From assembly GCA_030272155.1 (NCBI GenBank), contig CP126195.1, positions 5,005,001 through 5,069,000 on the forward strand: a stretch of DNA of 64,000 nucleotides. The letters run 5' to 3'. Made by a program: the position numbers and the translations under genes. The stretch's first letter is position 1. Each line of letters opens with the position of its first letter. This document shows, one piece after another, positions 36 through 52,395 of this stretch. The DNA is from Tetradesmus obliquus (lineage: Eukaryota > Chlorophyta > Chlorophyceae > Sphaeropleales > Scenedesmaceae). The notes under the pieces are model-generated. The model was not told where the DNA came from and made no database searches. It worked only from the letters and a program-made list of their open reading frames with translations.

Positions 36-570
36 GTACCCCCAGGGCCGTCCATCATGTTGATCTCAACTGCCAGCTGTGTCTTTGAACAATAGGCCGC
101 TGCCAATGTATCTACAGGGCATCCACTCCCTCTCTGAAAGTGTTATGTGAATGCACCCTCAGGGTCGTCCAGCGCGTTCGCCTCCACCGTGTCTTTGAAG
201 AGGAAGCTGCTGGCCTGAGGCCATAGACTAGGCAACACATAAATAAAACTGCATGGCCACTGCATCACCAAACACCATCTGCAGTTGAATTGCTCACACC
301 TTCAGGGTCATCCAGCGCGTTGACCTGACCTTTTCCTTCAACAGGAAGCCGCTGCCAACAAATTACTGAAGTAAACTTAATGCAGATAAAAGCTACATCC
401 CTCTGCACCTTTGGGGTCGCCCAGCACGTCGACCTCTACTGTATCTTTGAACAGCAAGCCGCTGCCAATGAACACCTACATGTAAGACATCTACTCCCCT
501 GTAACGCACCCTCAGGGTCGCCCAGCGCGTTGACGTCAACTGTGTCTTTGAACAGGAAGCCGCTGCCAAT
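36..570 (-). repeat. Five degenerate copies of the 3' end of CreA-like exon 2
   Basis: Copies lie at about 36-116, 154-217, 297-358, 406-468 and 507-569, downstream (in transcription) of the intact exon at 622-720. Each carries the segment encoding GSGFLFKDTVEVNALDDPEG or a variant, plus a GGTGC-like donor. Spacing is roughly 100-140 bp. The nearer copies (406-468 and 507-569) remain open; the 36-116 copy has an in-frame stop and the 297-358 copy is badly diverged. In the better copies the 5' boundary reads TTGGCAG|CGGC, a possible acceptor created where the full exon has GGCCAGCGGC. Confidence 0.8.
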
Positions 571-621
571 ATCAAACATTACCAAATCATCCTCTTGCAT
601 CTATTTCCTTTGTAAACGCAC

Positions 622-1262
622 CTTCTGGATCGTCCAGCGCGTTGACCTCTACTGTGTCTTTGAACAGGAAGCCGCTGGCCTGGAACTCGCCGATCTTGTC
701 ACGCCCAGCCCATGCGGCTCCTGCAGGCAGTACATGCGCAAGCAGTACAGACACAAACAAGCAGTACAGACACACAAGCAGTACATTCACGTACAAGCAT
801 CACATACACACGCTTAAAAAAATGATCTGGCGCTGGCAGCTGCAAATAATCTGCATTTCACCAGCAACGGCTGCTGCAGTGGCAGTTTCCATGTGCAGTT
901 GCTGGTGCATGAGCAGGCCAGCCCGGCAGCAGATCTGTGTGTATTGCCTGCCTGCCAGCGTGATGCTAGATGGTGCTGAAGTGTCATCAGCATATGTTTG
1001 AGCTGTTGCAATACGCATGCACGGCCATCCCGGTGGTTGCGGCTTGCTGCTGGTGCCATCCCACACGCTGCACTCGTGGCGAACCTGGAGTGAGCAGAAG
1101 CGCGGCGGTTACGGTTGCACACAGGGCTGCATCAGCAAATGCTGGTCCCTGATTTCTCTGTGCCTGGCATCTGGCTGCTGCTTTGGGCGCTGAGAAGGGC
1201 CGGAAGGGTGTCCTGGCAGCTGCAGTGTTTGCTGTCCTGCAGGTGTTCCTTGCAGCCAGCAT
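622..1262 (-). CDS. CreA-like protein, thylakoid-lumen targeted, 5' part (gene continues off the left edge)
   Basis: Two exons read on the minus strand. Exon 1 is 1262-1085 (59 codons + 1 nt, donor CCAG|GTTCGC). Exon 2 is 720-622 (99 nt, acceptor CTGCAG|GAGCC, donor GAAG|GTGCGT), and the phase-1 join is in frame. The N-terminus MLAARNTCRTANTAAARTPF is Arg/Ala/Thr-rich like a chloroplast transit peptide. It is followed by a hydrophobic stretch (ATVTAALLLTPG) and an AxA-type site (AAWA|GRD), the layout of a Tat/Sec lumen signal. The mature start, DKIGEFQASGFLFKDTVEVN then ALDDPEG, resembles the start of CreA-family proteins (E. coli CreA has an equivalent IG...FDDP segment). The family's molecular function is not established. 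Exon 2 is symmetric (phase 1-1). The remaining exons must lie left of base 1. The family call rests on this short segment. Confidence 0.6.
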
Positions 1263-2710: not shown

Positions 2711-5700
2711 GCCGCAACTCAGCGACGCAGCCGCAGCAGCAGCACGACGCAAACGGCACATCCTACCCACAGCCCATGTACCACAACGCTAGCCAGCAGC
2801 AGCAGCAGCAGCAGCATGGCAGCAGCGCGCCCACATCTACGCACACGCCCTACAGCAGCAGCACGCCCAGCGGCTACAGTGGTTACAACAGCGGCATGAG
2901 CAGCATGCAGCCGCCCGCCAGCGGCTGGAGCAGCAGCGCCGGCACGCACCAGGTGCACAGCAGCAGCGGCGGCAGCGGGCAGGCCACTGGGGCATACACC
3001 TCAGGCAGCATCCCGCTGCCTCACCAGCCAGGAGGTGAGCAGAAGATTGTTCCAGATAGTACCAGTATCAGATAGATGTGCTGTCATTTGACAACTCATC
3101 CATCGGTGCCTCAACATTGAGGTCTTCTGATGTTGCGCGGCAAACCCCACACCACCATATTGTAAGTTCTAAAAGCTTACATGCAAATGCAATCACCCTG
3201 TCAACAACCTTAAGCTCCCCCACCATCACTCCAACCCCCTGTCTGTAGGCTCTTACCCCAGCAGCATGACCAACAGCAGCGCCGGAGGTGCCTACCCAGG
3301 CGGTGCAGCAGCACTCTCCTCATCCTCAGGAGTCAACCTGCCGCTGCCGCAGCTCTCAGTCAGCAGTGGCATGCCCTCAGTGCCCCCAGGCGGCATGCCA
3401 GCCTCCTACCCCTACCCAGCAATGGGGGGCCTGCAAATGCAGCCGCCAGGTCACCAGCCGCCGCTGTCGGCCCCGGGGGTGTTAGGCGCGAGTGTTATTC
3501 AGGGCGGTTTAGGGCCCTACGGGCAGAACAGCGTGGCGGCTGGGCCGCAGGCGGCTGACATGGCGGCGCGGGCGTTAGCCGCGGTTCAGGCGAACACCAA
3601 CGGCGGCGTGCCGAGCAGCGGTTTAAGCGCGCAGGGTTTGGCGTCGGTGGTGACGCGGCCGCAGCTGGGAGATGACTTGTATTGCAGCTGCCCCATGGTG
3701 TGCGTGGTGGGCACAAACTACGGCGCGCCGCATGCAGTGCCGCTGAGCATCATGAGCCTGCAGTTTGAGGTGTCGTGCCACATCAGCCAGGCCTTCGTGC
3801 ACATGCAGCTGGTGTGCCACTACCCCATGGTGAGCTTGGTTTGCTTTATTTGCTTTTCTTTTCAGCTTGATTTTGAACGTTGTGTTGTTCATCTATATAA
3901 CGTGCCACATCAGCCAGGTCTTCATGCACATGCAGCTGGTGTGCCACTACCCAATGGTGAGTTGTGTGATTTCAATTACATATTCTATTGCAAACTGCAT
4001 TGTGTGTTGCTTGCCCAGCTATTTGCAGTGTGAACAGTGCTTCACACAGCGAGTTCCGCACAGTTGTTTTTCTTGCGTCGGCTGCTGCGGGCTGCTGTGC
4101 ATGTCCTGCCAGGTGCGCATGCTGCTGACTTCAAAACCCAGCCCCAGACCTGCAACAGGAACTGCAGCACCACCAGCAAGGGTCAGCCATTTGTTGCTTG
4201 GAACGCCCTCAAGCTTTCACCTGCAGTGCAACATGACATCCATCATACGTAGTGCCTAACTCACATCATATTACCTTGAGCTGTGAGCTAGATGGCATGC
4301 CTGTCGTATCACCAATCTGCTGTGTCACTGTGTGCTGCCACACCAGAACTGGAACGACGCGCCACTGGTGCTGTTCCTGCCCAAGAGCACCGACACCACC
4401 ATCACGGAGCTGTGCATTGAGAACATGGTGCGGCCCAGCGTGTTTGCCACAGCGGTGGTGCCGCTGGAGGACATGAAGAAGTACAGCGGTGGCAAGGGCG
4501 GCGTAGGTGCGTTATGGACATGTTATTTTGTTATGTTGCATTATGTCACTGTCATCACGGCAGGGCGTTGCCCGAGCGTGTTTGCCACAGCGGTGGTGCC
4601 GCTGGAGGACATGAAGAAGTACAGCGGCGGCAAGGGCGGCGCAGGTGCGTTATGTGACATGTTATTTTGTTGGCAGGACAATTTAACGTGCCGTATGTTA
4701 CAGCTGCAGCGTGTCAGGGCAGGGACTGCCACTGTGGGGTTTGCCACAGCCCACGCACATGTGCAGTAGGGGACGTTATTGCCGTTCACCTTGTGTGTCT
4801 CGCTCGCTGCCTTGACCTTCTGCCTTGCTCTTGTATTCATTCTGACATGCAGCGCCAGTCACGGCCGGCAGCGACCCCGAGGACACGGCAGGCACCGACC
4901 CCGAGATGTTCATGCTGCCGCTGCCGCCCGGGCTGCCCGGGGACCAGTACCGCGTGCGGCTGAGCTACTTCCACGCCATGGTCTTTGACGTGCTGCAGGG
5001 CAAGTACTTGCTGCGCCTGCCCACGACAGTGCCCGCGGTGAGTGTGGGCGTTGTGATTGTAGTTAGGTGGTGGTGTGTTATGGTGGTGTGTGGGCATTAT
5101 GTTAGGTGGTGGTGTGTTATGGTGGTGTGTGGGCATTATGTTAGGTGGTGGTGTGTTATGGTGGTGTGTGGGCATTATGTTAGGTGCTTGGTGTTTCGAC
5201 GTGCTGCAGGGCAAGTACGTGCTGCGCCTGCCCACGACGGTGCCCGCGGTAAGCTTTGGCATCTGCACTGTTGACTGTTACTGTGGTGACTTGTGGGTGC
5301 TGTGGTGGGTGCTGTGGTGCTTCGCGTGCTGCGCCTGCCCTCAACGGTGCCCGCGGTGAGCATGGTTGTACGAGCATTGTTGTACTTCTAGCCATTTTGA
5401 TGGTGGTTTGGTGGTGCTGTGGTGGGTGCTGTAGTGCTTGACGTGCTGCAGGGCAAGTACGTGCTGCGCCTGCCCACCACGGTGCCAGCGGTGAGTGTGG
5501 TTTTGTGGGTTCAGCTGTTATGGAGGTGGTTCCGCTGTGGTCTTTGACGTGCTGCAGGGCAGTACGTGCTGCGCCTGCCCACGACAGTGCCCGCGGTGAA
5601 TGTGGGTCTGTTGCGCTCGAATCATTGTTGAGGTGGTTTGTGAGTGCTGTGGTGGGTGCTGCGGTGAGTGCGTTGGTGGGTACTGCGGTGCTGGACATAG

Positions 5701-8111
5701 TACAGTCAAGTCAAGTGTGTGCTGCACCTGCCCACGACGGTGCCCGCGGTGAGCACAGGATCATGGCTGCTGTGTGACTGTTGTTGGTTGTTGTGGTGGT
5801 TTGGTGCAGCCAGTGGTCTTCGACGTGCTGCACAGGAAGTACGTGCTGCGCCTTCCCACGACGGTGCCCGCGGTAAGTGTGGGCGTTTCTTGTGGTTTCA
5901 TTGATGGTTTGTGGGTGCTATGGTCTTCGACGTGCTGCAGGGCAAGTACGTGCTGCGCCTGCCCACCACGGTGCCTGCGGTGAGTGTGGTTTGCTTGTGT
6001 GGTGTGGGGTTGCATTTCTATTTTCCACATGATGCGGGCAAGTGCGAGCTGCGCCTGCTCACTATGAGCCCTTGCAGACATTGCGGCCAGGATATGACGT
6101 TAGAGAGCATGGAATGTTCTGCTTGTTTGCTGAACTTGCTGCTGCTGGTGCTGCTGCTGCTGCTGCCGCAGGTGTGCCTGGCTCAGGGCAGCAGCGTGAA
6201 CAGTGTGCTGGACGTGAGGGTGGGCGTGAACACAGGTGGGCCCAGCCGCATAGCAGCGGCAGCAGCAACAGTGTAGGCTGCATGCACAACAGCAGTAGTA
6301 CTTGCGAGTCTGTATGCTTGCACAGTGTCTCAAGCTGCATTTAAAGGGTGGGCGTGATTACAGGCGTGGGCAGGCAGGCCGCAGCAGCAACAGCAGGCTG
6401 CTGCATCAGCGGGCAACAAACATGCTTGATGACATGAGGCTGCTTGTGCTTAGCTAGCTGTCATTGCCGTAACGCTTGCTTGTCACCCCTGACGCCCTTA
6501 CTTTGTTGCGTAATCAGGCACCAGCGATGACGTGGAGCTGCTGGTGCCCAGCCACCCAGTGGTCATCCAGTCAAAGCAGCCGGGGTCAGTCAACTTTGAG
6601 CTGGACACCTCACAGGTGCGTACTGCAGCAGCAGCATTGCGCATGAGCCGCACTTCAACAACATGCACAAGGCCTTCTTGCGCCTCAAGTATGCCAGTTA
6701 TGCATACTGTGAATCATCACAACCTGGACTCGCACTGTGCAATGGCAGGCACTTTCCATGCATCTAGCATCTCCTGCTTCTTCTTTTTGCAACAATGCGC
6801 GCTATTGGTCCTTGATTGCAGCGCGTGCTGCTACCGCTGCCCAAACTGGCCTTCGCGTTGTGCCTGACACCTGCTGCCTGACACCTGCAGTAGCCATAGT
6901 GGAGCTTCTGCCTCTCCTGCCGCAACAGGCTGTTTTGCTGTGCCTGCCACTGCTGCCACTGCTGCTGCTGCTGCTGCTGCTGCTGTCGCTGCTGCTGCTG
7001 CCGCCAGGTGTGGGAGAACGGTGACTTTGTGGCGGGCTACAGCGTGTGGACGCGCGACCAGGTCACGGCAACGGTGCATGTGGAGGCGCCACAGCCGGGC
7101 ATGCCTGACCAGCGCGGCACGTTCGCGCTGAGCATCACACCCCCAGGTGCGTTTGCCACATTTGCTGCAGCTTCGATACTTCTCTTTGCGCCTTCCCTCC
7201 CCCAGAGTGATGTGTACCTCGGTCAGACACCAGGCTAATTTTGTCTTTGTTGCTCCGTCAGCCCACAGTAATGTGTGCCTCTAAAACTTATCGCCTGCCC
7301 TTTCCTGCAGGCGCCGAGAACTGCTACCCATTCTGGTAGAAAACTATACTCACAACCCACTCCTTCTTTGCTTGCGCCGCAGGCCCGGAGAAGTGTGTGC
7401 GCTTCCCGCGCAGCGTGGTCTTCATGTTTGACCGCAGCGGCTCCATGACCGGCGACCCCATCCGTTTTGCCAAGGTGGCGCTGCTCAACGGGCTGCACAT
7501 GCTGGGGCCCGAGGACAGGTTCACTGTGGTGGCATTCGACCACGAGCAGCTCTGGTGGACGGGTGAGGATTTGAGAGGAACGTTGCGGGGTAGAGGTTGC
7601 TGGGCTGGTGCAGGGAAGCAGTGCACGGGCGGGGTTGCTGAAATAGTGCATACGTGTCAGGTGTGCACGTCTAGAGGAGCTTTGTGTGCTGCGATTGACT
7701 CAGTTGTCCACATCAACCCACAATGTTGCTCAATGGGCTGCACATGCTGGGGCCCGAGGACAGGTTCACTGTGGTGGCCTTCGAACACGAGCAGCTCTGG
7801 TGGACGGGTGAGGGGTTGCAGCTGCTTTCTGTCAAGGGTTGCTGTTGTGCTGGCGTGTTCATTGGATCTTGTACACATGTGCCGGCTGAGCAACACAGAG
7901 TGCGCTGTAAGTACAGCTGTGTCCCACAGTTCCCAACACCAAAGCGCAGTGGTTCTCCTATGCATCAAAAGTGGGTGCTGGTTGTGAGTGTTTGGCATGA
8001 TGCCGCTGCTGCTGCTTGCTGTCAGACTGACTGATTGAGGGCACACTTCAGCACATCCTCACCTGCACGCACTGCATTTCACCTGCTGACACTGCTGACA
8101 CTGCTGCTGCG

Positions 8112-8194
<83 letters not shown>

Positions 8195-11100
8195 ACCGGC
8201 TGATCGAGGCCACGCCCGAGAACATCCTCACCTGCATGCACTGGGTCAATGATGACCTGTCTGCGCGCGGCACCACAGACATCCATGCGCCGCTGCAGCG
8301 CGCACTGAAGCTGCTGGCGGGGGCCTCGGGGCTGCCACTGGTGTTCCTGCTCACAGACGGTGCGTGCGTGATGCACAGCGGACGGTGTAGTTTAATTTGC
8401 TTTTTGAAGCATAGCTGCGCGCGCTGAAGCTGCTGGCGGGGGCCTCAGGGCTGCCACTGGTGTTCCTGCTCACAGACGGTGCGTGTGTGATTCACAGCAG
8501 ATGATGTAGTTTTTCGCCTTTTGAAGCATAGCAGCGCGCACTGAAGCTGCTGACGGGTGCCTCGGGGCTGCCGCTGGTGTTCCTGCTCATGGACAGTGTG
8601 TGTGAGCGGCTGATGTGTGGAATGCACAGCAGAGAGATAGTGCATTTTGCTTCTTCTTAATGCACAGCAAGTAGCTGCTGAAGAGGATGTATCTGCTAAT
8701 TGCCGTCTAGAGCACCTGGCTTGCCTGTTCAAAGCGTTAATGTACTGTTTCTTGTGACCTGTGCGCGTGGTTTTGTCAACCTTGCAGGCTGTGTGGATGA
8801 CGAGCGGGACATCTGCATCATGGCGGAGAACTCCATCAAGGCCGCAACGGCCGTTGACGTCAGTAACATCGTCATAACAACCGATGGCAGCACGATGACG
8901 GTCAACCCGGCGCCGCCCACGCCCTCGCCACCGATGCTGGCGCCACGCGTGTACACCTTTGGCATTGGTAAGCGCAGAAACGTGTGAAGCATATGTTGAT
9001 CAAGCCAGCAAACCAGCTTGTTGTGTGATGGGTGCGGAGTGCCGGCGCAGCGTTTGTACACCTTTGGCATTGGTGAGCGCAAAACTGTGTACAGAAGATG
9101 CATTCAGATGCTTTCAGCCAGCAGGCCCTGCTGTTGTTTGGTGATTGCAGAGTGCTAGCGCCAGGCGTCTTCCCCTTTGGCGTTGGTGAGCATGCAGAGC
9201 GAGTAACAGGACATAACAGGCGCATGAGGCCAGCAGATGCCGGCATCGTGTGGTGAGTTTTCATAACCACACCTCACATGCTGCGCTGTTGCCTCTGCAT
9301 GTTTCTTACGTGTCCGCATCAGCATTTCGCGCCGCAGGCCCCTGCTGCAACCACTACTTCCTCAAGCGGCTGGCGGCCCTGTCGCTCAACTCCTACATCA
9401 TGCACACTGTTTCTCAGGCGCTGCCTCTGCACTCCACCTTATTTCACCATCATAATGTCACGCCGCAGGCCCCTACTGCAACCACTACTTCCTCAAGCGG
9501 CTGGCGGCCATCGGGCGCGGCATGAACGACGTGGCCTTCAGGCCGCACGCCATCCAGGCCGTGATGGAGCGCATGCTGGCGGCGGCTGCCATGCCCATGC
9601 TGTCCGACGTGCAGATCCGCGTGCAGGTGGGGGTTCATAAAACCTTGAGCAATTATGTGAAAGCGCTGTTTTAGGCAGTTGCAGTGGTGCTGTGGTAGTG
9701 CTGCTTTGCAAAGCTCGGGCCTGTTGTGGTGAGGTTTGAAGATGGCAGGGCCAAGGGTGTAGCCAGGACACAGTGTTGGCCGGCGCAGCTGCGCCATCCA
9801 GGCGGTGATGGAGCGCATGCTGGCAGCAGCCGCCATGCCCATGCTGTCAGATGTGCAGATCCGTGTCAGGTAGGGGTGTGTTTGTATAAGTCACTTTTAC
9901 TTCATGAAAAGCACTGTTGTTGGCAGTCACAGCGGTGTTGTGGTGATGCTGTTTGCAAAGCTCGGGCTTTCACTAAAGATGGAAGGGCTGAGTGTGTAGC
10001 TAGGGCACACACATCGTTGGCAGGCACAGCTGTGCCATATAGGCGATCATGGAGCGCATGCTGGCGGCAGCCGCCATGCCCATGCTGCCCGACGTGCAGG
10101 TCCGCGTGCAGGTGCGGCGGCATGTGTGTGGGGACCTCTTTGCAGGTTTTGCCAGCACCAAGCACTGCTGTTTGGCCATGAGGTTGAGCTTGTTCTGCAT
10201 GCTCCTGGGGCTGCCGTGTTGCCCTGCCGATGCATATCCTGTCCAGTTAACGCCAGCACAGACCGCCTAACTTGCTGCTGCTGCTGCTGCTGTTGCTGCT
10301 GCTTTCACCCTGCAGGGCCTGACTCAGGTGGAGCTGTACCCCTTCCCCATCCCTGATGTGTTTGTGGGGCAGCCGCTGCTGGTCAGCGGCAAGTTTGAGG
10401 GAGACTGGCCGGAGAGCGTGGAGATCTGCGGCACGCTGCCTGACGGCAACAGTGAGCATGTGTTACGCTGCTTCTTCTGCATCTGCTGCGCGTGCTGCGC
10501 GTGCTGCGCCTGCTGCATCCGTTGTGTCTGAGGTTGTCGGTACATATCAGCTGCTGCTAGAATGTGTGGCGTGGTGTTGTCCGGCCGTAGGGCGTGGATA
10601 TCTGCGGCACCCTGCCTGACGGCAACAATGAGCATGCGTTCGCTGCTTCTTTTGCATCTGCTGCGCCTGCTGCGCCTGCTGCGCGTGCTGCGCCTGCTGC
10701 ATCCGCTGTGTCTGAGGTTGTCTGTACATATCAGCTGCTGCTAGAATGTGTGGCGTGGTGTTGTCCGGCCGTAGGGCGTGGAGATCTGCGGCACGCTGCC
10801 AGACGGCAACAGTGAGCATGCGTTCGCTGCTTCTTCTGCATCTGCTGTGCCTGCTGCATCTGTTGTGTCTGAGGTTTCATGTTTTTATCAGCTGCTGCTA
10901 TGTACACCTTGACGTGGTGTTGTCTGGCCAGAGAGCGTGGAGATCTGTGGCACCCACTGTGAGTGCACAGCACGCTGCTGCTGCTGCTGTCTCTCTCTTG
11001 TGTTTGATGGGTTATGTTTCCAATATGTCTCCATGTACACTCTGGCATGGTGTTGCCTGGCTATTGCAATGGTGCTTGCTGTGACAGCTGTACCTTATAA

Positions 11101-36800: not shown

Positions 36801-39076
36801 GTGAATCCTGGAGCCGTGGCGCCTCTGTGCTGTGTGTGCAGGTGGCGCGGCTGTGCTCTGCCATGGTGAGCAGCAAGCCGCCGCCAGGCAAAGAGTTTGA
36901 CCTGCAGCAGGAGCAGGTCTTCTTCATTAAGGTGGGAGCCGCCAAGCACATGCCTGTTGAATGTCACAGTTAATCCATGGATGGCTGTGGTCACAGTGCA
37001 TACTGGGCACTCGGTCAGGTCCTGGATGCCCTTCAGGGCTGCTCCTTGCGGAACTATCTGCATGGCCTGGCACATGCTGTACATATGCATCCGTTAACCA
37101 CAGTACTTTGGTCTAGTGCATTTGGAGCTCAGCAGCCAGCAGTAGCAGCGTAGCACGTAACAGAGACGCCCGGGCTGTACACCGTTGCCGTTTTTTCAGG
37201 CTTTGCAGCTGCTGCAGCTGTAAAGGGAAAGCTTGTGTCAGCTGACACACAGCGCTGCGGACGACCTCAGGATTTGCTGGCACCCATTGGCTGTTGCAGG
37301 CACGCTGCATGCACGTCTGCCCCATGTGCATGTACTGGTTGCTTCAAGCCACTCTGCGTGTAGCTGAAGTAAGACGCTGCTGCTGCTGCTGCCGTGCTTG
37401 CAGGAGGGTGCCTTTGAGCTGCAGCTAGTCGACCTGGCAGCGCAGCGCGCAGCAGACGCAGCGTTCGCAACAGCCGTAGCAGCCTCATCAGCCAGTGCAG
37501 CCGCCAATGAACTCACTCCAGCGCGCCGCAACCCTAGCGCTACCGGCGCTCCTGCTGCAGCTGCCAGCTGCGCTACAACACAGCCAGCTACTAGTGCTCT
37601 TCCAGATGGGGACGGCCTGCTTGACGCTGCTGCAGCAGCAGCAGGCTTTGCGGCAGCAGCTGGGCCAGGGCTGGGTGGCTTGCCTGCGCTGGCGCAGCAC
37701 AGCGTGCTGGCTAGTGTGCGTGTGAAGGATGGGCGGGCGCTGGGCACGCTAGGCTACGAGCGGGAGCTGCGGCGGCAGCGGCACGCAAGTGTACCCAGGC
37801 GGGTGAGTGGAAGTGACAATGGGCGGCTGTGGTGTGGCTTTGTAAGATGCATTGCTATGAGCGGGAGCTGCGGCGGCAGCGGCACGCAAGTGTACCCAGG
37901 CGTGTAAGTGGAAGTGACAATGCGGCTGTGGTTTGGCTTTGCAAGATGCATTGCTATGAGCGGGAGCTGCGGCGGCAGTGCCACGCAAGTGTTCCCAGGC
38001 GGGTGAGTGGAAGTAACAATGGGCGGCTGTGGTGGATTTGTAAGATGCATCGCTATAAGCGGGAGCTGCGGCGGCAGCGGCACGCGAGCGTTCCCGGGCA
38101 GGGGAGTGGCTTGGGTAGCTCCTGACATCGGGCATGGTGGTATCAGGATGGCAGGGTGTGGGTGTGATGCTTGGACACAAGTATGATGCCGCCGCTACTG
38201 CTGTTGCTGGTGCTGGTGATGATTGCTGCTGCTTGCTGCAGGCGGTGGCTATGCTGGGCCCTGGCAGTTGGTTTGGTGGTGGCAGCACCATCTACGGCTC
38301 GGGGCAGCTGCTGCTGGCGCTGCGCGTGGTAGCAAGAGGTGCTGGCCCAGCCTGCACGGCAGCTGATCCCCAGCTGCACGTAACAATGTACATTTTTGCC
38401 TGCTGTGAGCACGGCTTAGTAGTTTGCAGTGTGGCGAACCAGCTGCACAGCAGTTTGTGGATGTGGGTGCCAGCTTGCTGTGCTGCTGTTGAGCCCAACC
38501 TGCAGCCTTAGCAGGGCATGAAAGCACGTGTGTGTAACTGCCTGCAGCTGATAGTATTCTCATTGTGCTGTGCTGTGCAGGCAGCGGCTGCGAGCTGATC
38601 CACCTGCCATTGGACGGCATCACGCAGCAGGGAGGCGAGGGCCTCATTGGGTGAGGCGCTGATACACGCTGCTGCAGCTACTGTCCACCAGATTTTGCAC
38701 TGCGGTCACCACCAGCAGATGTTGCACATGCTCTGAACACTGCACACATCTTGGCCAGACAGCGTTTATATGCGCGTTTTGAGATTCGGTAGGCTATATC
38801 TGTGTCGATTCTTTGGCCGCTTTGTTGTGTGCGGGCCTATGGCTCCCACCTGCTTGAGCATGAGCTGCCTGCAGCACCGCTTTCTGTTTTTTGATTGCAG
38901 GCGGCTGCGTGATGATGCAGCGTTCAGCCTGACGTACCACCTGGGGCGCCTGGGGCTGCTGCCACCTGGCGCCTCTGTAGGCCACCCTCAAGCCGCACTA
39001 CTGTCGGCATCAGCAGGAGCAGCACACACAGCAGCGCACACAGCAGCAGAGCTGTACGGACCGACACATGGTCCAG

Positions 39077-42593: not shown

Positions 42594-43297
42594 CAGTAAC
42601 CCATCAATCCGCTGATATGAAGGTGTCGCACCTTGGGGCAGGAGACATTTGTCAGATGGCTTGTGGCTGGCAGATGCCAGCGGAGAGCTGTGGCACATGC
42701 CTCAGCTGCAGCAGCTGCAGTCAGCCGCACTGCCAGCTATGTCATCACACGTCTCAGCTTCGGCTTCCATTGGCTGCTATCAACAGCACACGCAGCAGCA
42801 GTAGCAGCAGCAGCAGCCGGGGCATATGTGTCGTCCGCCTGCTTGCTCATAATTGCAGTCCAACTGTGTGTTGGCGACTGCCTGTCTGGTAGTGCTGTCA
42901 GTGCTGCGATGCACTAGACAGAGCCGCACTGGCATCGCATGGTGCACCAGCACAGCTGTGTTGCAGGTTATCACATGGTTGCTAGGTGGTGGTAATTCAA
43001 CTATTTGTGTGTGGAGAGCGCCGCGTGCGAGCATCCAAAAGCTGGGATACTGCTAAATTCAAAAACAGCAAGTGGTCAGGCTGGTGTGCAGGTGCCAGGC
43101 CTGGTGGGCGTGTTTTCATCCAGCTGATGGATTGCAGGGCACAATCTGGCATGTCAAAAGAACTTTGAAAGTAACAGTTCAGCCTTTGAATGAGCAGGGC
43201 GCAGTTGGCGAGGCCATTACTAGTTCTGCGTGGTAGTGTCAACAGCACCGTTGCCCGCCCACCACAGGACAAACGAGCAGGAAGCAATCGCTGCTGA

Positions 43298-43305
43298 TAT
43301 ATAAA
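43298..43305 (+). promoter_or_regulatory. TATA box candidate of the geranylgeranyl-reductase-like gene
   Basis: TATATAAA lies about 185 nt upstream of the ATG at 43489, in an otherwise GC-rich region. It is the clearest TATA-like element next to a host start codon in this window. Confidence 0.5.
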
Positions 43306-43488
43306 CTGATCATAACCTTCAGACTCACTGGATCATGATGGCTGCCGTTTTAAAAACTGCCAGAACCTGAGCCTGAGCACTACTAGCGCGCCTCAACCTC
43401 AGCTCGAACTTGAGCTCTGAACCGGCCACTCCTTCCTACCTTTGGACGCTGCCAGGGGTCCCTCCTTTAGATTTATCAATTGACCACC

Positions 43489-46400
43489 ATGGCGCCCGTC
43501 GCAGAGAACGTGCAGAAGGTGCTCGAGTCAGTGAAGGAGAACAAGACCACGGTCGCAGCTGTGGGTCTGGGCGGTCTGGCAGTTGCAGGAGCAGCGCTTT
43601 ACATCAGGCGTCGCCAGCTGACTCCCCCAGCAGTGGGCAAGTACCCAGTAGGGACTCTGCCAGCTGATGCATATGACGCCGTGATCGTGGGCGCTGGGCC
43701 TTCTGGATCGGTGTGCGCCTTCTATTCTGCCAAGGCTGGTGCCAAGGTGGCCCTGCTGGACAAGGCTACGTTCCCCAGGGGTGCGTTGATGTTAGCCTTA
43801 GTGCCCGCCAGCGCACCAGCAACGCAAATAGGACGCCACGCTCCATGAACGCAGCTGATTTAGTATATAGACACTTAGTTCAAGCAAATTGAATGATCAG
43901 CTGGGTCGTACGCAGTGTGTTCGCGGATGGGTGACTGACTGCTCTGACAGTTCCTACTGCTGGTGACTAGCAGACTGCTGTGCAGTTCATCTGTGCAACT
44001 GCAGCCGGCACTCTCAGCAGAGTTCTTGTTACAGGTATCTGTGCGTATTCTGACATCTTTCTTTGTGCTGCCCCTGCAGACAAGTACTGCGGTGATGCTG
44101 TGTGCACTCCTGCCATCAGGTGAGCTGCTGGCCAGCTTGCAAGAACACAGAAGTACAAGTGTGGCAGCAACTGCATCCTGCAACGGAACCAAAAGCAATG
44201 CAGAATGCAGCGTACTGCCGTGAAGGAGTAAGCCAGTACGTCTGGCGGCACCCCTGAAATCCTGCTTGAACCTGCTTTCTGCTCACACCTGGTGTTGCCT
44301 GGCGAACAGTCATGCGCAGCTGCAGTTGCTTGCTCAATGCTGTTGATAGGTGCATCTGCAAATCAAACAGGCGCCTGACGGGCTTTCAGCCTGCACTCAT
44401 TGCATGATGCTCACTGCATGATGCTCAAACGTGATCAGCGTCAGCAGTCGTTGCGCAAGGATACGGAACACAGAGCAACTCTGCCTGCTCCACACTGTGA
44501 CTGTGGAGACTCATTTCAACCCACGTACTGTACACACCTGCAGTCCAATCATGCTTTGCTGCTGCTGCTGCTGCTGCTGCTCTGACCAGGATCCTGGAGG
44601 ACATGGGTGTGCTGAAGGAGCTGATGGACAACAACGAGGCACACTTTGCAGATGCAGGTGCGGCGCCACTGAAACTGTTGTTGGTACTTGCAGCTGATCG
44701 CGTCTATGCATGCGCGCTGCAGCTTGACTGCTGAGCTTTGCAGCTCAAGCATTGCAGCACAGGTCTACTTGCTGCAGGTGCAGCTGCGCAGCACATTCTG
44801 TGACTGCCGCGCTTGCAACTGCACAACAGCATCAGTAGGAGCAGCAGGCGCACACATCACTCTGCACAGGGCGCCAGCTGGCGAAAGTGTGCAACTAGGA
44901 CACGCGCGATGAAAGGCAGCAGATGGGCAGACAAGCAGACGGACGGGCAGACAGACAGATAGACAGGCAGACAGACAGACAGACAGTCAGACAGGCGCTC
45001 ATGCATGCCTCATCACGATGCAACCATCTGCAGGCGGCTTTGTGTCGCCCATGGGCATCAGCTACGTGGGCGCCAGCTACGCAAAATGTTACAGTACTGC
45101 TCCCTTCTCACTAATCGTTTTGTCTGATCCCACTGTTGTCTGCAGGCGGCTTTGTGTCGCCCATGGGCATCAGCTATATGGGCGCCAGCAAGACCAACTG
45201 ACGCTTTACAGAACTTGGTTTTGAAGCATTCGTGTGTTTTCATTGTTTGCCGCAGGCGGCTTTGTGTCGCCCATGGGCATCAGCTACGTGGGTGCCAGCA
45301 AGGAGAAGCTGGGCGAGGCTGCCTGCTGCGCGGTGAAGCGCATCAACCTGGACAACAGGATCGCCAAGAAGGCCAAGCAGGCCGGCGCAGACCTCAAGGA
45401 GGGCTTCGAGGTGGGTTGTGTTATGCTACTTTGCACTGTTACATTGTTACAGCCAGATGTTGGCATGTCGCTCAGCAGCGGTGTTCAGTTTGCGTCCTGA
45501 AGTCAGGCACAGCATGCCGTCTCAGGAGCAACAGCATGCATGGCTGCTGCCTGCCATCCTCCGCATTGGTGCAAGCACACACAACCCAGCCAAACACCAG
45601 CAGCCTCACCACTCCTCCTGCTGTTCTTCGTGCTTCACAGCAGGTGACTGGCGCCACCTTTGACAAGGAGGCGGGCCTGTAAACAGTCATGCAACAGCAG
45701 CATCATCAGCAACATTGGTTCGACTCTGTGTCCTCTGTATCCTGCTGCAGGTGACTGGCGCCACTTTTGACAAGGAGGCGGGCCTGTGGACCGTCACCGC
45801 AGCCTCAGGCGCCACCGTGCGCGGCCGCATGCTGGTGTGCGCTGACGGCGCCACCAGCCAGCTGGCCACCAAGCTGGGCTACTGCACAGGTGGGCGGTGT
45901 GCAGTGTGCGATGAGATGGTGGTGGTGGTGTAGTGGCGGGCCCTGGGCGTGTGAGGGCGTGCTGGCTGGTTTGGCATGCTGCAGCTGCTGCCAGTTGTAA
46001 ACAATTGCGCTGCTTTGCGTATTCTGTTCCATGCAAGCGCTGCTCTGTGCTGCAGCAGGTTATATCAACGGCCCCAGCTGGGTGACACTTACCACTGTCG
46101 TTGCTGCTGCTGTGCTGCTGCTGCTGCTGCTGTGCGCAGAGGCTCCCCGTGGCGTGTGCAGCCGCGCCTTTGTTGAGGGCGGCACCCACAACGCCAACTT
46201 TGACGGCGTGTGCTTCTACCCCAAGTGGAGCCTGCCCGGCTACGCCGCGCTGTTCAAGTGAGGCGCTGCTGCTGCTGCTGCTGCTATTATCAATTGCTGT
46301 TGTGCGCTCGGCTATGTGTGCTGATGCTGTTGCGTGCACACAGGCAGATGCTGTGCGGACGCTTTGTTGCATGAGCAGCAGCAGCAGCAACCGCAGCAGT

Positions 46401-48347
46401 TGTTTGTTACTGTTGGTGTGCCCGCAGCTCGCCCAGCTTCACCTTGCACCTTGATTTTGTCCTGGCAGGCACCCCAATGACGAGCTCAATCACTGCTACT
46501 ACCTCTTCCCCTGCCATCTTAGCGCGAGCAGCCCAGCAGCAGCTGTTGCTGGTATTGGCACTTGCTGACAACACTTTCCTTGTCATTCTTCTCTTCCTGT
46601 CTGCGGTGTCCAGGCACCCCAACGACGAGCTCAACTACTGCTACTACCTCATCCCCTGCGGCAAGGCCGGCTACTGCGGCGACGTCACCGAGGCTGACCT
46701 GGCGCGCCTGCACAACGACGCCATCACCAAGGTGCGGATGAAGTGCTGTTTGTACAGTGAGATTCCAGCTGCGATGCTTCAATTGTGTTGCTTCCGGAGG
46801 TTGGTGGTTGTGGAGCTGTGCATGTCCCATCCAGCTGCTTGGCATGACAGTATGTCGATTTTGAGATTGGTGCTGGGTGCTGATCGCTCGTTTCTCTTCC
46901 CTTGCAGGACCCCTTCATCAGCGCCGCGCTGGGCCCCAACGCCAAGCTGGAGCGCATGCGCGCCGCCAGCCTGCGCCTGGGCGGCCAGGGCCTGGCCACC
47001 ACGCACGACGACCACCTCATGATCATCGGCGACGCTGCGGGGCACATCGACCCGCTCACAGGTGCGGCAAGGACAAATGTTATGTCACAATTTGCTTTTG
47101 CATCAGGCCCAGCTGTTGTGATGACTACCTGATCATCAAAAACTACGCAGCAGGCAACATCGACCCGCTCACAGGTGCCGCGGGGTGCCGAGGCACAGCG
47201 CATGTACTACAAGATACACCCCTAGCTGTTGCCGGATTTGCAGCATCTGCAAAGCTACAAGGGCCTTGCCGTCAGCTGCCCAGCTTGGCAGCATGCACCT
47301 GTTCTCCGGGTGGTCCCCTTTTACATGACATTTGATTGGCTGGGTGGGAGGTGCATGCTGTCAGCCTGGCTGATGCCTCTGCTGCTGCTGCTGCTACATG
47401 TTTTCTTCCAATCTTTTCAGGCGAGGGCATCCACACTGCCATGATGGGCGGCCAGGCAGCAGCAGACACGCTGCTGGACATGCGCTCCACCGGCGACTTC
47501 AGCAAGGCCTCCACTGCAGTGTACCAGCGCCGCTGGATGGCCCAGTACGGCCACGACTTTGGCCTCAGCACAAAGTTCGCGGAGCTCATCTACAGGTGGG
47601 TGCTGCGTTGTTTTTGTGTTGTTGTTTGTAAGCTTCATGTTGTTTCTGGGCACTGGTTTTGAGGAGGGGGAAGATGTGTGTGAGTTGCAGGCAGGTAATG
47701 CTGTCACGTTGCCATGTGACGCCTGCTGTGCAAGGGTCCCATCATGGTAGATGCCACGGCCAAAGTGCAGGTGGTGCCTTTGTGATGCATGTGACACTGT
47801 CATATGTGAAACACCCTCTGCAGGTACCCTGTCATCGTGGCTCCATTGCCAGCGACGTGCACCCCATCACATGCCTCCATATGTCATCACAAATGTAACA
47901 CACTCCTCTAACACCATTACAACAACTTCATGCCGCAGGTACCCCATCATCATGGACGCCATGGCCAGCGAGGTGCAGCGCAAGGGTGACGCGTTCATGT
48001 CCAAGTGGGCAGAGATCATGACCAACATGCAGCCCAAGACCTACTTCTTCAGGCCAGACGTGGCAGCGCAGGTGGGCAAGAACAGCTGTATATCCACTAA
48101 TTGAAGTCGAAGCAGCAGTTTGCTCAGCGGGCAACAGCCTGTCAGCCATCTGTGCAGAGACTCCAAAGGTTCTGACAGGCGGCAGTCTGCTGGCAGTTTT
48201 GGTCTGATAATCCATCATGTTACTGACTCCGCTTCTGCCGCTGCCGCTGTTTGATTCTGTGCGCTGCAGCTGGGCTTTGCCATTGTGCGTGAGGTGTTTG
48301 AGCAGAAGGTGCTGGGCAAGGCAGACAAGTACCAGCTCAAGGCATAA
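43489..48347 (+). CDS. Geranylgeranyl reductase-family FAD-dependent oxidoreductase, N-terminally anchored
   Basis: Eleven exons: 43489-43780, 44080-44119, 44590-44657, 45256-45410, 45751-45889, 46140-46257, 46614-46731, 46908-47061, 47421-47595, 47939-48071 and 48270-48347 (489 aa, every phase matched). The ATG sits in a good CACCATGG context. Residues about 20-39 form a hydrophobic helix (TTVAAVGLGGLAVAGAALYI), suggesting a membrane anchor. The FAD fold follows: VIVGAGPSGS (66-75), the family motif FPRDKYCGDAV (95-105), VCADGATS, and the second FAD motif IIGDAAGHIDPLTGEGIHTA. Family members reduce isoprenoid chains or archaeal-type lipids; related flavoproteins do other chemistry. The substrate cannot be told from sequence. 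It differs from plant CHLP in its N-terminal anchor, so a chlorophyll/tocopherol role is not claimed. Partial exon copies lie in at least five introns. Confidence 0.9.
45028..45193 (+). repeat. Two upstream copies of the 5' end of exon 45256-45410
   Basis: CTGCAG|GCGGCTTTGTGTCG with the following CCCATGGGCATCAGCTA occurs at 45028-45082 and 45140-45193, before the true exon (CCGCAG|GCGG, 45256). Both keep the acceptor and encode GFVSPMGISY(V/M)GAS; the second runs into a stop (KTN*) after the copy ends. Confidence 0.9.
45641..45690 (+). repeat. Upstream copy of the 5' end of exon 45751-45889
   Basis: CAG|GTGACTGGCGCCACCTTTG continues to GCGGGCCTGTAAACAGTC. It matches the exon start (VTGATFDKEAGLWTV), but TGG is replaced by TAA, so inclusion would terminate translation. 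Confidence 0.9.
46464..46518 (+). repeat. Upstream copy of the 5' end of exon 46614-46731
   Basis: GGCAG|GCACCCCAATGACGAG then CTCAATCACTGCTACTACCT repeats the exon start (HPNDELNYCYYLIPC), with a few substitutions and an intact acceptor. Confidence 0.85.
47118..47176 (+). repeat. Downstream copy of the 3' end of exon 46908-47061
   Basis: A diverged segment matching DDHLMIIGDAAGHIDPLT ends ATCGACCCGCTCACAG|GTGCCG, as in the original donor. The coding part has changed far more than the splice junction. Confidence 0.75.
47821..47868 (+). repeat. Upstream copy of the 5' end of exon 47939-48071
   Basis: CAG|GTACCCTGTCATCGTGG then CTCCATTGCCAGCGACGTGC matches the start of the true exon (YPIIMDAMASEV) with several substitutions and an indel. 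Confidence 0.75.
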
Positions 48348-49514
48348 ACCATAAACCATGAGCCCTTGTCAGTCAGCTCAGGGCTTAGCGCTTTTGGCTC
48401 AAGCAGGCTGAGCCTACAGTTGCCTTTGCAGCAGCGAGTGGCTGCTGCTGGATTGAGCGGGGCATTGCGCAGCAGCTTGCGGCGCTTGCATCATGTACAG
48501 GCTGCTGCAGTAGCAGCGAACACACGGGATGCAATGCAACAAGCTGCAGCTTGTGAGCAAGAGCACAACACAAAGCAGCGAGGCTTTGGTTTTCATGACA
48601 TGCCATCTGTGCATGTGTGTTGCGAGAGCCTGCTAGGCTGTCAGTACTAGCCTACTGGCCAATCCAGCCTGCGTAGCAGTCACTGCTAGAATAGTATTCT
48701 GAGTGCTGTGTTATCTTTGTGGTGTGGTGTGAGTGGGACTGTGTGAGACAGGAGCGAGGCTTGCAGCGCCTTGTGTGGCTTCAGGGACAGTCAATCTTTC
48801 TGTCAGCAGGCTGTTGTTAGCACGTTGTCAGGCAGTGTGTTGCGGCTGACACGGTGTGCACAAGAGACCGAGTGATTCTCTTCTGGAAGTCCGTGTGTGA
48901 GTGCTCCCTCAGCAATCAGCAGTGAGTCAACATGGCCGCATCACAGCACATGCGACTGCAGCTGCAAAGCTGCAACACATTTACTGGGTATGCCTGAGCA
49001 TGCCAGCATCGCTCGCTGTGCGCGCATGCTATGCTGCATGTCAGCACTTCATGTCGATTTAGTTCAAAATGATTTGACAGCAGCTCTGGTTTTAGCTGCT
49101 GCATGGATGCGGTGGCACATTGCTGATGCAGTTCGCAGCATGTCATCACCTGTGTCTCTGTCACCAGCTGTCACGCACTGAGGCTTGTGATGACAGCAGA
49201 AAATGCTACCCCACACGCGGTAACAGCAACGTTGCTCCTGCGCACTGTCAATATTTTCCCCGTGGTACTGCAATGGTCGGCCTTGACGGCGTAACTGGCC
49301 ACTGTGCGGATGGTGCATACTGTTGAGCAATCTGCTGCCGTACCCTTAAACCCTCGAGTATGCTGCCTGCTCTCAGTCCACATGCTGCAAGACAACCGAA
49401 GCTTTGAAAGTGTGCATAGTAAGGATGGCTTAGAGCTGTACTAGCACGTGGGCCTCCGCATGTAGTTAGCAGCTGTAGCATAATCGCAGTTACCTGCACG
49501 GGCTGCCTGACAGC
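48348..49514. other. Intergenic region, no gene recognised
   Basis: An ORF at 48366-48650 begins 18 nt after the preceding stop codon and has a low-complexity translation. It is more likely 3' UTR. The promoter of the bestrophin-like gene should lie in the right half. Confidence 0.5.
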
Positions 49515-52395
49515 ATGCAAACCACCTCGATGTACAGGACCAGAAACCATAATGTGCTTACATACAGTGCACGGCAATTTGCTCGGCCCATGCAGGGCAG
49601 GGCACGGAGGCAGGTCATCGCAGCTGCACGGGACAGTGTTCAGCAGAACACAGGGCCTTTCCACGCAGGCCACGACAGCCATCCGACATACAGGGACATA
49701 GAAAAGGAGAGGGGCAGGCAGTTTCGGCGCTCGGTAAGGGCGTGGTACTGGTGGCAGTACAAGTCCAGCAGGCCGAGCAGCAGTGCGCACTGCATGCAGA
49801 GCACATCTGTATGCACAGCAGTAGAACGGCAGCAGCTGCAGCCTGGCCTCTGTGTCCTGCACATCAGCAGTTCCCTCAGCAAGTTCAAAGTACCATTGTT
49901 GTTTATTGCTCTTTCCCTTCAAAGCTCTGTTCCTAACTGTCATCTGCGTCACCATGTGATACACCACCACGCCTCACTCCTGCTCAACGGCAGTCACACA
50001 ACTCAGCACAACCTCACATCCCACTGTGTTCACACCATCTTTCTACGTCCTGCATGCAGCACTTTGACCATGACGAGTGGGCGCGCCACCGCTGCACCAA
50101 CCGCTACTGGCGCCACCTCAAGACAGGCCTGCTCACCAGCCGCATTGTGAAGGGCCTTGCAGGACCACTCAACTACGTTGGCGCCATTGCCTTTGCAGTC
50201 AGCAGCTATGAGTGGGCGCTGGCACATGGCATGCTGCATGATGTGGGGCTGTGGCACTGGCCAAGCGTGTCAGTCAGCATTGTGGGCCCCTTCAGCCTGT
50301 CCACGTTTGCGTTGTCGTTGCTGCTGGTGTTCCGCACAAACGGCTCGTACCAGCGGTGAGCAGGAATTGCAGCTGTGAGTTTGAGTTCGTCCGAAAACTG
50401 CCAGCTTGAAGCAATGTGCAAACTATCTGCATGCAGACTTGCATCAAGGTGCCTGCAAGCGCAACATGCAGCGGCAGCAGCATACCTCACAATCAGCTGC
50501 ATCACCGTTTTGGTTGCCAGCTGTGTAGCTCACACATATACTTTGGCAGCACTACCACAGCAGCACACAGCATGCGCTGCAATGCTAGACAAGCTTCGTG
50601 TTTGCAACACCTCCCTGCAGGTGGAACGAGGCGCGCCGCCTGTGGGGCCTGTGCACCAACCAAAGCCGTGATATCGCGCGCCAGGCGCTGCTGTGGATGC
50701 CGCCCGACACTGACGCAGCGCTGGCGGCTGCAGCGTGCCGCTGGGCTGCTGCGTTCCCGCTGGTGCTGATGTGCTCGCTGCGGGAGGACCACATCCTGGA
50801 GGAGGTGCTCCCGGTGAGTGGAGGAGGGGGGCGGGCCGTTGTGCAGAGTGTTACAGGGCTGTTGTGCATGCAGAAACATGCTGCCAGCCCCTGGAGGAGG
50901 TGCTGCCGGTGAGGCCCGGGAGGCGGGGAGGCTGTTAGTTGAGGTTGTTGTGCAAGCTCGCAAGTTTCATGCAGATTATGTGGCTGCAGGGACCAGTGCA
51001 GTGCAGTGCAGCCCCTGACTACTGGGCTGACCCGTGTCACGACATGCTGGCCCAGCTGCAGCAGTGCAGAGGCAGCTTGGAGCAGGAGCAATACAGCGCA
51101 CGGGTACCTGCCTAGGAACAGTGGTGACATATGAGCCAAGCTGCTGCTTGCTGTGCACTGCCCTGCAGGGTGTGCTGCTGCCGGAGGAGCTGGAGTTTGT
51201 GCTGCAGCAGCGCCACGCGGGCACTGCTGTGCTGCAGGCGCTGGGCGAGTGCGTGCAGGCGTCACACATGCAGCCCATGCAGAAGATGCGGCTGGACGAA
51301 AACATCACAGTGATGCAGGTGAGGGGCTGAATAGCCGAGGATTGGTGGCGGCAGCGGCAGCAGCACCTGTATACATGTTACATTTGGAACACCAGACAAC
51401 CTACAGCTGCACGTGTATTTTGACGTCATTACCAACGATGATGATGCCGCACAGGGTGTGCCACCCCTCTCTTCAACCTGCCCTGCAACCCCCTCGCTTG
51501 CCTGCAGGATGTGATGGGCGGCTGCGAGCGCATCTTCCGCACGCCCATCCCGCTGTCGTACACGCGCCACACCAGCCGCTTCCTGGTGTGCTGGCTCACG
51601 CTGCTGCCCTTCTGCGTGGCAAACGCCTTCGGACGGCTCACAGTGCCCATCTCCATAGGGCTGGCCTTCTTCCTCTTCGGCATAGAGGTGCGGATTAACT
51701 GCTGGCGTACACAACAAAAGCGAGCAGAGTGGTTGTGCTGGTTGGCTAGCAGCACCCTGCGCTCACAAAGGCAGTGGAGTGCCTTGGACTCTTCGATGAC
51801 TGGGTGTGGGCAGCTAGCAGCAGCACATTTGGGACGCAGAGCACACATGCAGGCATGCCTTGTCAATTATGCTGCGGTGTCGCGCTGCACATCCGTGCCT
51901 GACTGCCCATCCCGCTATGCTTGCTTGCAGGAGATTGGCGTGCAGATTGAGGAGCCCTTCGGCATCCTGGCCCTGGAGGTCTTCTGCGACAACATCTGCA
52001 AGAACATCCAGCAGGCACAGGCAGCAGCAGCACCGCTGAAGCAGGCAGCACAAGGCCACCTGAGTGCAGCGCAAGTGCTGCTGCCGCTGCCGCTGCCAGC
52101 GGCAGCAGCTGGCATTGGCTTTGTTGCTGGGCACAGCTTTGGAACCCAAATGCAGCAGACCAGCAACGTGCTGGGTGCTGCTTCAAGCACTGCACATAGC
52201 AGCAGCAGCAGCAGCAGCAGTGACTATGGCAGCAGCGGCGAATATCTTATGCCCCCTGGCTTCCTGCACCTCACACTGCCGGATGCAGCTGACACATGCA
52301 GCCGCATCACTGGCGCTGATAAGCAGGCGCTGCAGCTGTATGTTGGCAGCACAGTAGCAGCCCCTGACTTTGAAGACGAGGGCTTCACTATGTGA
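49515..52395 (+). CDS. Bestrophin-like anion channel, probably plastid-targeted
   Basis: Six exons, 49515-49733, 50060-50355, 50621-50813, 51169-51318, 51508-51687 and 51931-52395 (1503 nt, 500 aa), are all in phase. Exon 1 is Arg/Ser/Thr/Gln-rich like a transit peptide. The bestrophin (UPF0187) body starts at DEWARHRCTNRYWRHLKT and shows SLSTFALSLLLVFRTNGSYQ, RWNEARRLWG and the hallmark IPLSYTRHTSRFLVCWLTLL followed by LPFCVANAFGRL and IEEPFGILALEVFCDNI. Several hydrophobic segments fit the four-helix channel. Related algal plastid bestrophins (Chlamydomonas BST1-3) are implicated in bicarbonate entry to the thylakoid, and plant VCCN1 in chloride flux; which applies here is open. The C-terminal ~130 residues are Ala/Gln/Ser-rich and unique. 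Exon 3 has one downstream junction copy. Confidence 0.92.
50896..50936 (+). repeat. Downstream copy of the 3' end of bestrophin exon 50621-50813
   Basis: CCTGGAGGAGGTGCTGCCG|GTGAG repeats the original TCCTGGAGGAGGTGCTCCCG|GTGAG about 100 bp further on. The intronic GGAGG(C/A)GGGG tail is also duplicated. Confidence 0.85.

What the first reader, a model, noticed from the sequence alone, without database searches (positions are those of the whole stretch)
36..50936. Window-wide reiteration of single splice junctions in unrelated genes
Seen: six of nine cellular genes (CreA-like, VIT/VWA, Ubl-Myb, CNBD, GGR-like, bestrophin) carry local copies of exon fragments, roughly 35 in all, each containing exactly one exon-intron boundary. 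Polarity is consistent. 3'-exon + GT-donor copies lie downstream of the intact exon, and 5'-exon + CAG-acceptor copies lie upstream. The coding part decays (stops, indels) while the AG or GT usually remains. GMPP and DPH3 lack it. Inference: introns grow by tandem duplication across junctions, or the decoy junctions have a role in splicing. I know of no named system matching this.
Basis: partly seen in the sequence, partly recalled or inferred. Interest (0 to 1): 0.88.

Follow-up and report, generated by a model that had tools for sequence, protein, structure and literature searches.

The report
Introns grown by splice-junction tandem duplication
In this green-algal genome some genes have lengthened their introns by repeatedly duplicating short stretches that straddle an exon edge, and the exon half of each seemingly dead copy often stays fresh while the intron half decays, which leaves rows of false splice junctions.

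Summary
I curated 51 families (87 copies; 21 families and 39 copies in the window), each with one donor (26) or acceptor (25) junction. Outermost copies reach a median 49 bp into the exon and 7 bp into the intron (intron side measured to 12 bp). Nine of nine nested partial re-hits in P-type ATPase genes elsewhere have the stated polarity.

Best explanation: ordinary head-to-tail duplication of about 128-bp units spanning a junction, inside existing introns. Carrier introns have median 444 bp; minus whole units 231, like other introns (p=0.63); minus only the exon-like copies 370 (p=8e-5). Intron flanks of true and false junctions keep faint homology (25 of 49 z>2; control 4 of 79).

Polarity follows from selection: the functional junction must be outermost. 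Decoys look neutral: GT/AG kept in 64 of 72 (about 61 expected), stops at the neutral share. Yet exon halves are too similar for their flanks' age (35 of 49 below every clock simulation) and synonymous-biased, so I infer gene conversion from the exon onto its copies.

Not shown: conversion itself, why loci differ, any splicing role, and whether duplication favours junctions.

The parts
38..720 (-). CreA-like gene (minus): true exon end at 622-720; donor-type copies at about 503-565, 405-464, 297-354 and 146-217 (family F0)
3774..3961 (+). F1 donor pair in the VWA gene: true 3774-3834 (exon ends 3829), copy 3901-3961
4434..4671 (+). F2 donor pair: true 4434-4532 (exon ends 4506), copy 4572-4671
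4975..5989 (+). F3 donor array: true exon end 5037, seven copies 5189-5989
7482..7813 (+). F4 donor pair: true 7482-7568 (exon ends 7562), copy 7727-7813, 97% identical
8295..8604 (+). F6 donor array, two copies (exon ends 8359)
8935..9198 (+). F7 donor array, two older copies (exon ends 8967)
9317..9509 (+). F8 acceptor pair: copy 9317-9378, true 9448-9509 (exon starts 9469)
9549..10117 (+). F9 donor array, two copies (exon ends 9626)
10405..10953 (+). F10 donor array, three copies (exon ends 10451)
11656..11780 (+). F11 donor pair (exon ends 11690)
29209..29363 (-). F14 acceptor pair in the Myb gene: true 29209-29245, copy 29327-29363, 37 of 37 identical
29573..29758 (-). F15 donor pair: true 29701-29758, copy 29573-29630
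29842..30157 (-). F16 acceptor array: true 29842-29901, copies 29993-30050 and 30103-30146
37753..38109 (+). F17 donor array in the CNBD gene, three copies (exon ends 37802)
45027..45302 (+). F18 acceptor array in the FAD-binding (GGR-like) gene, two copies (exon starts 45256)
45640..45796 (+). F19 acceptor pair (exon starts 45751)
46466..46659 (+). F20 acceptor pair (exon starts 46614)
47007..47181 (+). F21 donor pair (exon ends 47061)
47820..47977 (+). F22 acceptor pair (exon starts 47939)
50795..50913 (+). F23 donor pair in the bestrophin gene: exon ends 50813, copy 50890-50913 (23 of 24)

Best explanation
These are tandem genomic duplications of units of about 110-150 bp that happened to start in an exon and end in the neighbouring intron (or the reverse). 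Because the outermost junction still gives the normal mRNA, each event is nearly neutral and simply lengthens the intron by one unit; unequal exchange then expands some arrays, up to seven copies seen. The intron half of each unit, free to change on both copies, decays. The exon half plus the splice motif stays recognisable because the true copy is held by purifying selection and, I infer, overwrites its dead neighbour by short-range gene conversion. Shown: unit structure, additive intron length, residual homology of the intron halves, neutral marks in decoys, rate mismatch, clustering by locus. Inferred: gene conversion, unequal exchange, the original break or replication error, and why only some loci are prone.
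For: Length budget: carrier introns median 444 (n=29), other introns of the same genes 249.5 (n=46), introns of 13 non-carrier kinesin loci 225 (n=152); minus whole units 231 (p=0.63 vs others), minus only the exon-like copies 370 (p=8e-5). Intron flanks of true vs outermost false junction: 25 of 49 z>2, mean z 2.69; within-intron control 4 of 79, mean 0.18. Exon part expected from random placement 60 bp, observed 49. Decoys neutral: GT/AG 64 of 72; stop share of non-synonymous changes 2 of 49 and 6 of 121 vs 3.2% expected. Conversion: in 35 of 49 families the flanks are more diverged than in every clock simulation set by exon identity, and exon identity does not predict flank similarity (rho -0.03); decoy-unique changes 51 synonymous of 100 vs 30% expected, p=1.4e-5. 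Genome-wide: 9 of 9 nested re-hits in 7 of 25 P-type ATPase loci obey polarity; six of the seven loci were read and show the copies.
Against: Intron-only duplications are rarer than the 44% that the random model gives, and traces of decayed ones are weak: intron self-similarity in carrier genes vs non-carrier loci p=0.17, though z>3 in 3 of 31 against 1 of 114; the length budget leaves room for 15.5 hidden events (95% CI -2 to 35), where the random model would need about 25 for the 31 families in those introns (my arithmetic). Strong clustering (15 of 20 kinesin loci without a family; variance/mean 4.84, 0 of 20000 simulations) is unexplained. In 8 of 18 multi-copy arrays exon parts are not better kept than spacers, so conversion cannot be general or recent everywhere. 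Some young-looking pairs (F14, K5, K21) show no flank homology at all. The conversion step rests on rate contrasts, not on observed tracts. No outgroup, RNA or reads were available. Clock simulations assumed one indel ratio (0.3).
Confidence: 0.66

Rival explanations
1. A duplication process that targets exon-intron junctions, for example breaks or template switches linked to transcription, splicing or nucleosome edges.
For: 39 of 42 (or 39 of 49) events span one junction vs 56% expected; first-copy distances are narrow, IQR 111.5-151.5; events favour donors in some genes and acceptors in others (permutation p=0.034, seven genes or loci).
Against: The excess can come from loss of recognisable intron-only duplications; exon-part length fits random placement; the length budget does not exclude hidden intron-only events; the side bias is weak and was tested post hoc.
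Confidence: 0.15
2. The decoys are selected: false junctions act as splicing decoys or regulators.
For: Exon half and splice motif are far more similar between copies than the adjacent intron.
Against: GT/AG retained no more than expected; stops at neutral share; in 8 of 18 multi-copy arrays exon parts are no more alike than spacers; 15 of 20 kinesin loci have no family.
Confidence: 0.06
3. Copy-paste of the exon end alone into the intron by local template switching; spacer and following intron are both original.
For: Spacers and following intron look unrelated by eye; some young-looking pairs show no flank homology (F14, K5, K21).
Against: Copy-only subtraction leaves introns too long, p=8e-5; residual flank homology in 25 of 49.
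Confidence: 0.07
4. Insertion of a mobile element (introner or other) with long target-site duplications.
For: Structure copy-spacer-copy resembles a target-site duplication.
Against: The spacers tested matched only their own place in the genome (two queries covering three families; that search skips very common words); copy length varies; spacers often match the following intron.
Confidence: 0.02
5. Assembly artefact.
For: No reads were available.
Against: Copies differ by 0-23%, carry independent changes and occur with fixed polarity on several contigs.
Confidence: 0.03

Closest known systems
Tandem genomic duplication as a route of intron gain (review PMC3443670, passages read; Drosophila cases PMC2891723, passages read)
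   Same: Short head-to-tail duplication touching coding sequence, neutralised by splicing.
   Different: The cases described there duplicate an exonic AGGT or proto-splice site and create a new intron; here an existing junction is duplicated and an existing intron grows, several times per gene.
Internal gene duplication and intron creation (Gao and Lynch 2009; recalled, not read)
   Same: Within-gene duplications, some including one splice site.
   Different: I recall no arrays of single junctions, exon-anchored conversion or clustering by gene there.
Small tandem duplications from end-joining with fill-in at staggered breaks (PMC8355091, passages read; patch-mediated repair in rice and paired nicks in Arabidopsis recalled)
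   Same: Produces short direct tandem duplications.
   Different: Not tied to junctions; whether it acts here is untested.
Concerted evolution of tandem repeats by gene conversion and unequal exchange (general knowledge)
   Same: Array expansion and homogenisation.
   Different: Here the master copy is a constrained exon end and the recipients are intron copies.
Introners (PMC9860276, passages read: Scenedesmus, Tetradesmus, chlorophyte and Chlamydomonas not found; one passage puts introners mainly in fast-evolving lineages such as green algae)
   Same: Mass change of introns in green algae.
   Different: No element shared between loci was found for the three spacers tested here.

Membership tests
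Tandem genomic duplication | Adjacent direct copies of one segment | tested here: met
Tandem genomic duplication | Whole segment added, including the part between copies | tested here: met
   length budget
Tandem genomic duplication intron gain | A new intron arises between duplicated AGGT sites | tested here: not met
   curated copies lie inside predicted existing introns; window models that skip them give continuous domains
Tandem exon duplication | A complete exon with both splice sites is copied | tested here: not met
   one junction per curated copy
Introner / mobile element | Same element at many loci | tested here: not met
   three spacers in two queries, self matches only; the other spacers were not tested genome-wide
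Functional splicing decoy | Decoy GT/AG kept above the neutral rate | tested here: not met
   64 of 72 vs about 61 expected
Functional splicing decoy | Decoys bound or used in RNA | not testable with these tools
   no RNA data
Gene conversion / concerted evolution | Recipient similarity decoupled from flank age | tested here: met
   (35 of 49; rho -0.03); but 8 of 18 arrays show no exon-spacer contrast between decoys
Gene conversion / concerted evolution | Observed conversion tracts between strains | not testable with these tools
   no relatives held

The most novel reading that the evidence does not exclude
A duplication mechanism that acts preferentially at exon-intron junctions of particular genes (tied to transcription, splicing or exon chromatin) is continuously lengthening introns in this lineage, with exon ends acting as master copies that re-imprint themselves on neighbouring intron DNA.
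Probability: 0.14. Interest if true: 0.86.

Novelty: new variant of a known kind. Interest (0 to 1): 0.62.

Why it matters
Intron lengthening is usually put down to transposons and small insertions (general knowledge). Here arrays make up 48% of the length of the 29 carrier introns examined, with a visible unit. The genome matches Tetradesmus obliquus in size and GC (108 Mb, 57%; PMC5966456 Table 1, passage), whose mean intron (462 bp there) is longer than in the four algae it is compared with (230-302); in my sample mean introns are 235 bp in non-carrier kinesin loci and 364 bp in carrier genes. So the process could contribute to a lineage-wide trait, which is untested. It also offers a natural assay of short-range gene conversion, because one copy is held fixed by selection. 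Gene finders can be misled by the false junctions: mine called several of them as exons.

Tried and rejected
Insertion of unrelated filler between exon-end copies was my first reading; rejected. Copy-and-insert of the exon end only: rejected on intron length. Mobile-element source of the spacer: no match outside its own place for the three tested. Link to codon GC3: Spearman p=0.33 in 20 kinesin loci. First-copy distance avoiding multiples of three: 6 of 39, not sustained with the added families, 12 of 51. Weak remnants at junctions of non-carrier kinesin loci: almost none, 163 introns, both sides, mean z -0.02 and 0.18; 4 of 326 sides z>3 (L036 9.9, L045 7.4, L046 5.2, L037 3.9), not followed up. 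DEAD-box search showed no nested re-hit, but only 32 of 136 candidates were scored. Literature: ten searches (listings) and passages of five papers showed me no description of this pattern; that library lacks most subscription papers.

Rows dropped: from the list I left out of both denominators the low-complexity or exon-internal pairs (W+ 7998 and 21955; L048; L049; L051) and the random-stretch loci L052 and L053, whose pairs I took as coding or low-complexity without close study. Counted as intron-only in '42': W+ 12301, L032 5087, L044 3754. Added as unassigned in '49': L032 1334, L043 439 and 688, two in L045, L050 7869 and the L050 8039-9359 group. The L043 688 pair looks like an antisense GST-like exon (my reading), and L032's first two families probably lie in a neighbouring gene, so clustering is by locus, not strictly by gene; one L043 item was nevertheless counted as a family there. 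The L057 226-293 pair and the L059 115-155 pair were seen but not added; 12 overlapping pairs by the rule; 9 nested and sharing an end, 3 overlapping only and not classed. The intron part was capped at 12 bp; BLAST extents are longer in some families (F2 26, K24 38, K23 41, K6 91 bp). One search counted K26 in a wrong frame; one search used the right one. Junctions were set by hand from a self-trained gene finder, not from RNA; family K25's junction was moved.
Full report
Source. The window lies at G000:C5:5005001-5069000 in a 104.66-Mb assembly of 17 contigs. Window GC is 56.6%. Size and GC match Tetradesmus obliquus (108 Mb, 57%; PMC5966456 Table 1, passage); the species is my inference, not a tool result.

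Observation. Self-BLAST of the window gave 53 pairs, 46 of them direct and within 1 kb. I trained a small gene finder on the exons of 20 kinesin loci (donor CAG|GTGAG, acceptor CTGCAG|G) and mapped pairs to exon edges. I curated 39 junction families with 72 copies, then added 11 from six P-type ATPase loci and one in bestrophin: 51 families, 87 copies, 26 donor and 25 acceptor. Exon part of the outermost copy: median 49 bp (IQR 41.5-68.5). Intron part: median 7 bp (4-10), but capped at 12 by the query; BLAST extents are longer in F2 (26), K24 (38), K23 (41) and K6 (91). First-copy distance: median 128 bp (111.5-151.5). The averaged identity profile stays near 0.8 (donor) or near 0.9 (acceptor) for about 25 bp into the exon and falls towards background within 8-12 bp on the intron side.

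Not local to the window. A Pfam search of the whole genome with PF00122 lists 72 matches, which group into 25 places. By a fixed rule (overlap of 15 or more profile positions, within 1 kb, nested, sharing one end within 5 positions) nine re-hits of an exon end occur at seven places, and all nine have 5'-end pieces upstream and 3'-end pieces downstream; three other overlapping pairs are not nested and were not classed. The DNA of six of the seven places confirmed them and showed further families. Among 20 kinesin loci, 15 have no family, while L044 and L050 have seven each in the count used; variance/mean is 4.84 and none of 20000 random allocations reached it. Junctions of non-carrier kinesin loci show almost no weak remnants (4 of 326 sides z>3). 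In the window, 28 junction sides of GMPP, DPH3 and the Big_9 gene show none.

What chance gives. Random duplications with the observed distances, placed in the gene structures of the 15 other kinesin loci and kept only if the mRNA is unchanged, span one junction in 56% of cases, with 60 bp of exon and 70 bp of intron. So one-junction structure and polarity are largely what selection leaves: a duplicated donor works only if the first copy is used, a duplicated acceptor only if the last is. The observed share is still higher: 39 of 42, or 39 of 49 when every unassigned item is counted as intron-only.

Origin of the unit. By eye the copies look like exon ends separated by unrelated filler, and the three spacers tested match nothing elsewhere in the genome. 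Two tests show that the whole unit was duplicated. First, the intron sequence after the true junction and that after the outermost false junction keep faint homology: 12 of 32 z>2 and 25 of 49 in the enlarged set, against 4 of 79 in a within-intron control; some high z values in CTG-rich families (K26, P1, P8) are inflated by low complexity. Second, carrier introns are longer by whole units: 444 bp against 249.5 in other introns of the same genes and 225 in 13 non-carrier loci; subtracting whole units leaves 231 (p=0.63 vs others), subtracting only exon-like copies leaves 370 (p=8e-5). Arrays make up 48% of the length of the 29 carrier introns.

Are the copies functional? Decoy GT is kept in 35 of 41 and AG in 29 of 31 copies; at 92.4% per-site identity (282 differences in 3698 exon sites) about 61 of 72 are expected. 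Stops make up 6 of 121 (K26 mis-framed there, with three non-synonymous calls and no stops) and 2 of 49 of non-synonymous changes, against 3.2% expected. In the 18 multi-copy arrays neighbouring units have exon parts no more alike than spacers, within 0.06 identity, in eight (F6, F7, F10, F17, K1, K2, K12, K20); exon parts are clearly more alike in eight (F0, F3, F9, F16, F18, K21, K22, K25), where part of the contrast comes from unequal spacer length; K15 and K26 are in between. So the copies behave as neutral DNA whose exon half is sometimes refreshed.

Why I infer gene conversion. Given exon-half identity, a clock predicts much more similar spacers than seen: in 35 of 49 families the observed flank score is below all 40 simulations, and exon identity does not predict flank similarity (rho -0.03). 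Changes unique to one decoy are 51% synonymous (51 of 100), against 30% expected for neutral decoy mutations (p=1.4e-5). That is expected if synonymous changes of the exon were copied into the other decoys. Coding constraint on decoys would also raise the synonymous share but should remove stops, which it does not. Constraint at the RNA level cannot be fully excluded.

Open points. Decay should hide intron-only duplications, but direct evidence is thin: intron self-similarity in carrier genes is not significantly raised (p=0.17; z>3 in 3 of 31 against 1 of 114), and the length budget allows 15.5 hidden events (95% CI -2 to 35), where the random model would need about 25 for the 31 families in those introns (my arithmetic). 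A junction preference therefore remains possible. Donor or acceptor preference differs between genes (VWA gene 9:1, L044 1:6; permutation p=0.034 over seven genes or loci), which could reflect replication or conversion direction, but this is weak and post hoc. Why some loci are full and others empty is unknown; codon GC3 does not explain it.

Comparison. The event class is tandem genomic duplication, known as a route of intron gain (PMC3443670, PMC2891723; passages). The difference is that an existing junction is copied and an existing intron grows, repeatedly, with exon-anchored refreshing of the copies. Small tandem duplications by fill-in and end joining at staggered breaks (PMC8355091; passages) are a plausible origin but untested here. 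I call it a new variant of a known kind.

Noticed in passing
window 55620-60738 (-): Ty3/gypsy-like retrotransposon: a 1384-residue uninterrupted frame that reads like protease, reverse transcriptase, integrase and a chromodomain-like end, plus a gag-like frame (my reading, no family search).
   Followed up: no
window 61166-61216 and 63858-63908: 51-bp inverted repeat at 98% identity, 2.6 kb apart, next to the retrotransposon.
   Followed up: no
window 4975-5989: Largest array in the window: seven donor copies with G/T-rich minisatellite spacers of unequal length.
   Followed up: partly
L050 5803-6733: Six acceptor copies in a kinesin gene form one open frame of about 1.1 kb because the CTG-rich spacers read as leucine runs; whether this is ever translated is unknown.
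   Followed up: partly
VWA gene vs L044: Donor copies dominate in one gene (9:1) and acceptor copies in the other (1:6); permutation p=0.034 over seven genes or loci.
   Followed up: partly
L052 8037-8605 and 9432-10000: 569-bp direct repeat at 100% identity downstream of a LINE-like reverse-transcriptase region (my reading).
   Followed up: no
L053 2000-4000: Helical-repeat protein resembling the OPR family of green algae (motif recalled, not searched).
   Followed up: no
L054 85-280: 12-bp minisatellite (GGCGTGTTTGAA) beside a P-type ATPase gene that carries junction copies.
   Followed up: no
L049 5970-6228 and 6414-6672: 259-bp direct duplication at 92% inside one predicted coding exon, unlike the junction copies.
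   Followed up: no
L036 junction at 3312, L045 at 2191, L046 at 7697, L037 at 5557: Four isolated weak exon-end copies (z 3.9-9.9) in kinesin loci that I counted as non-carriers.
   Followed up: no
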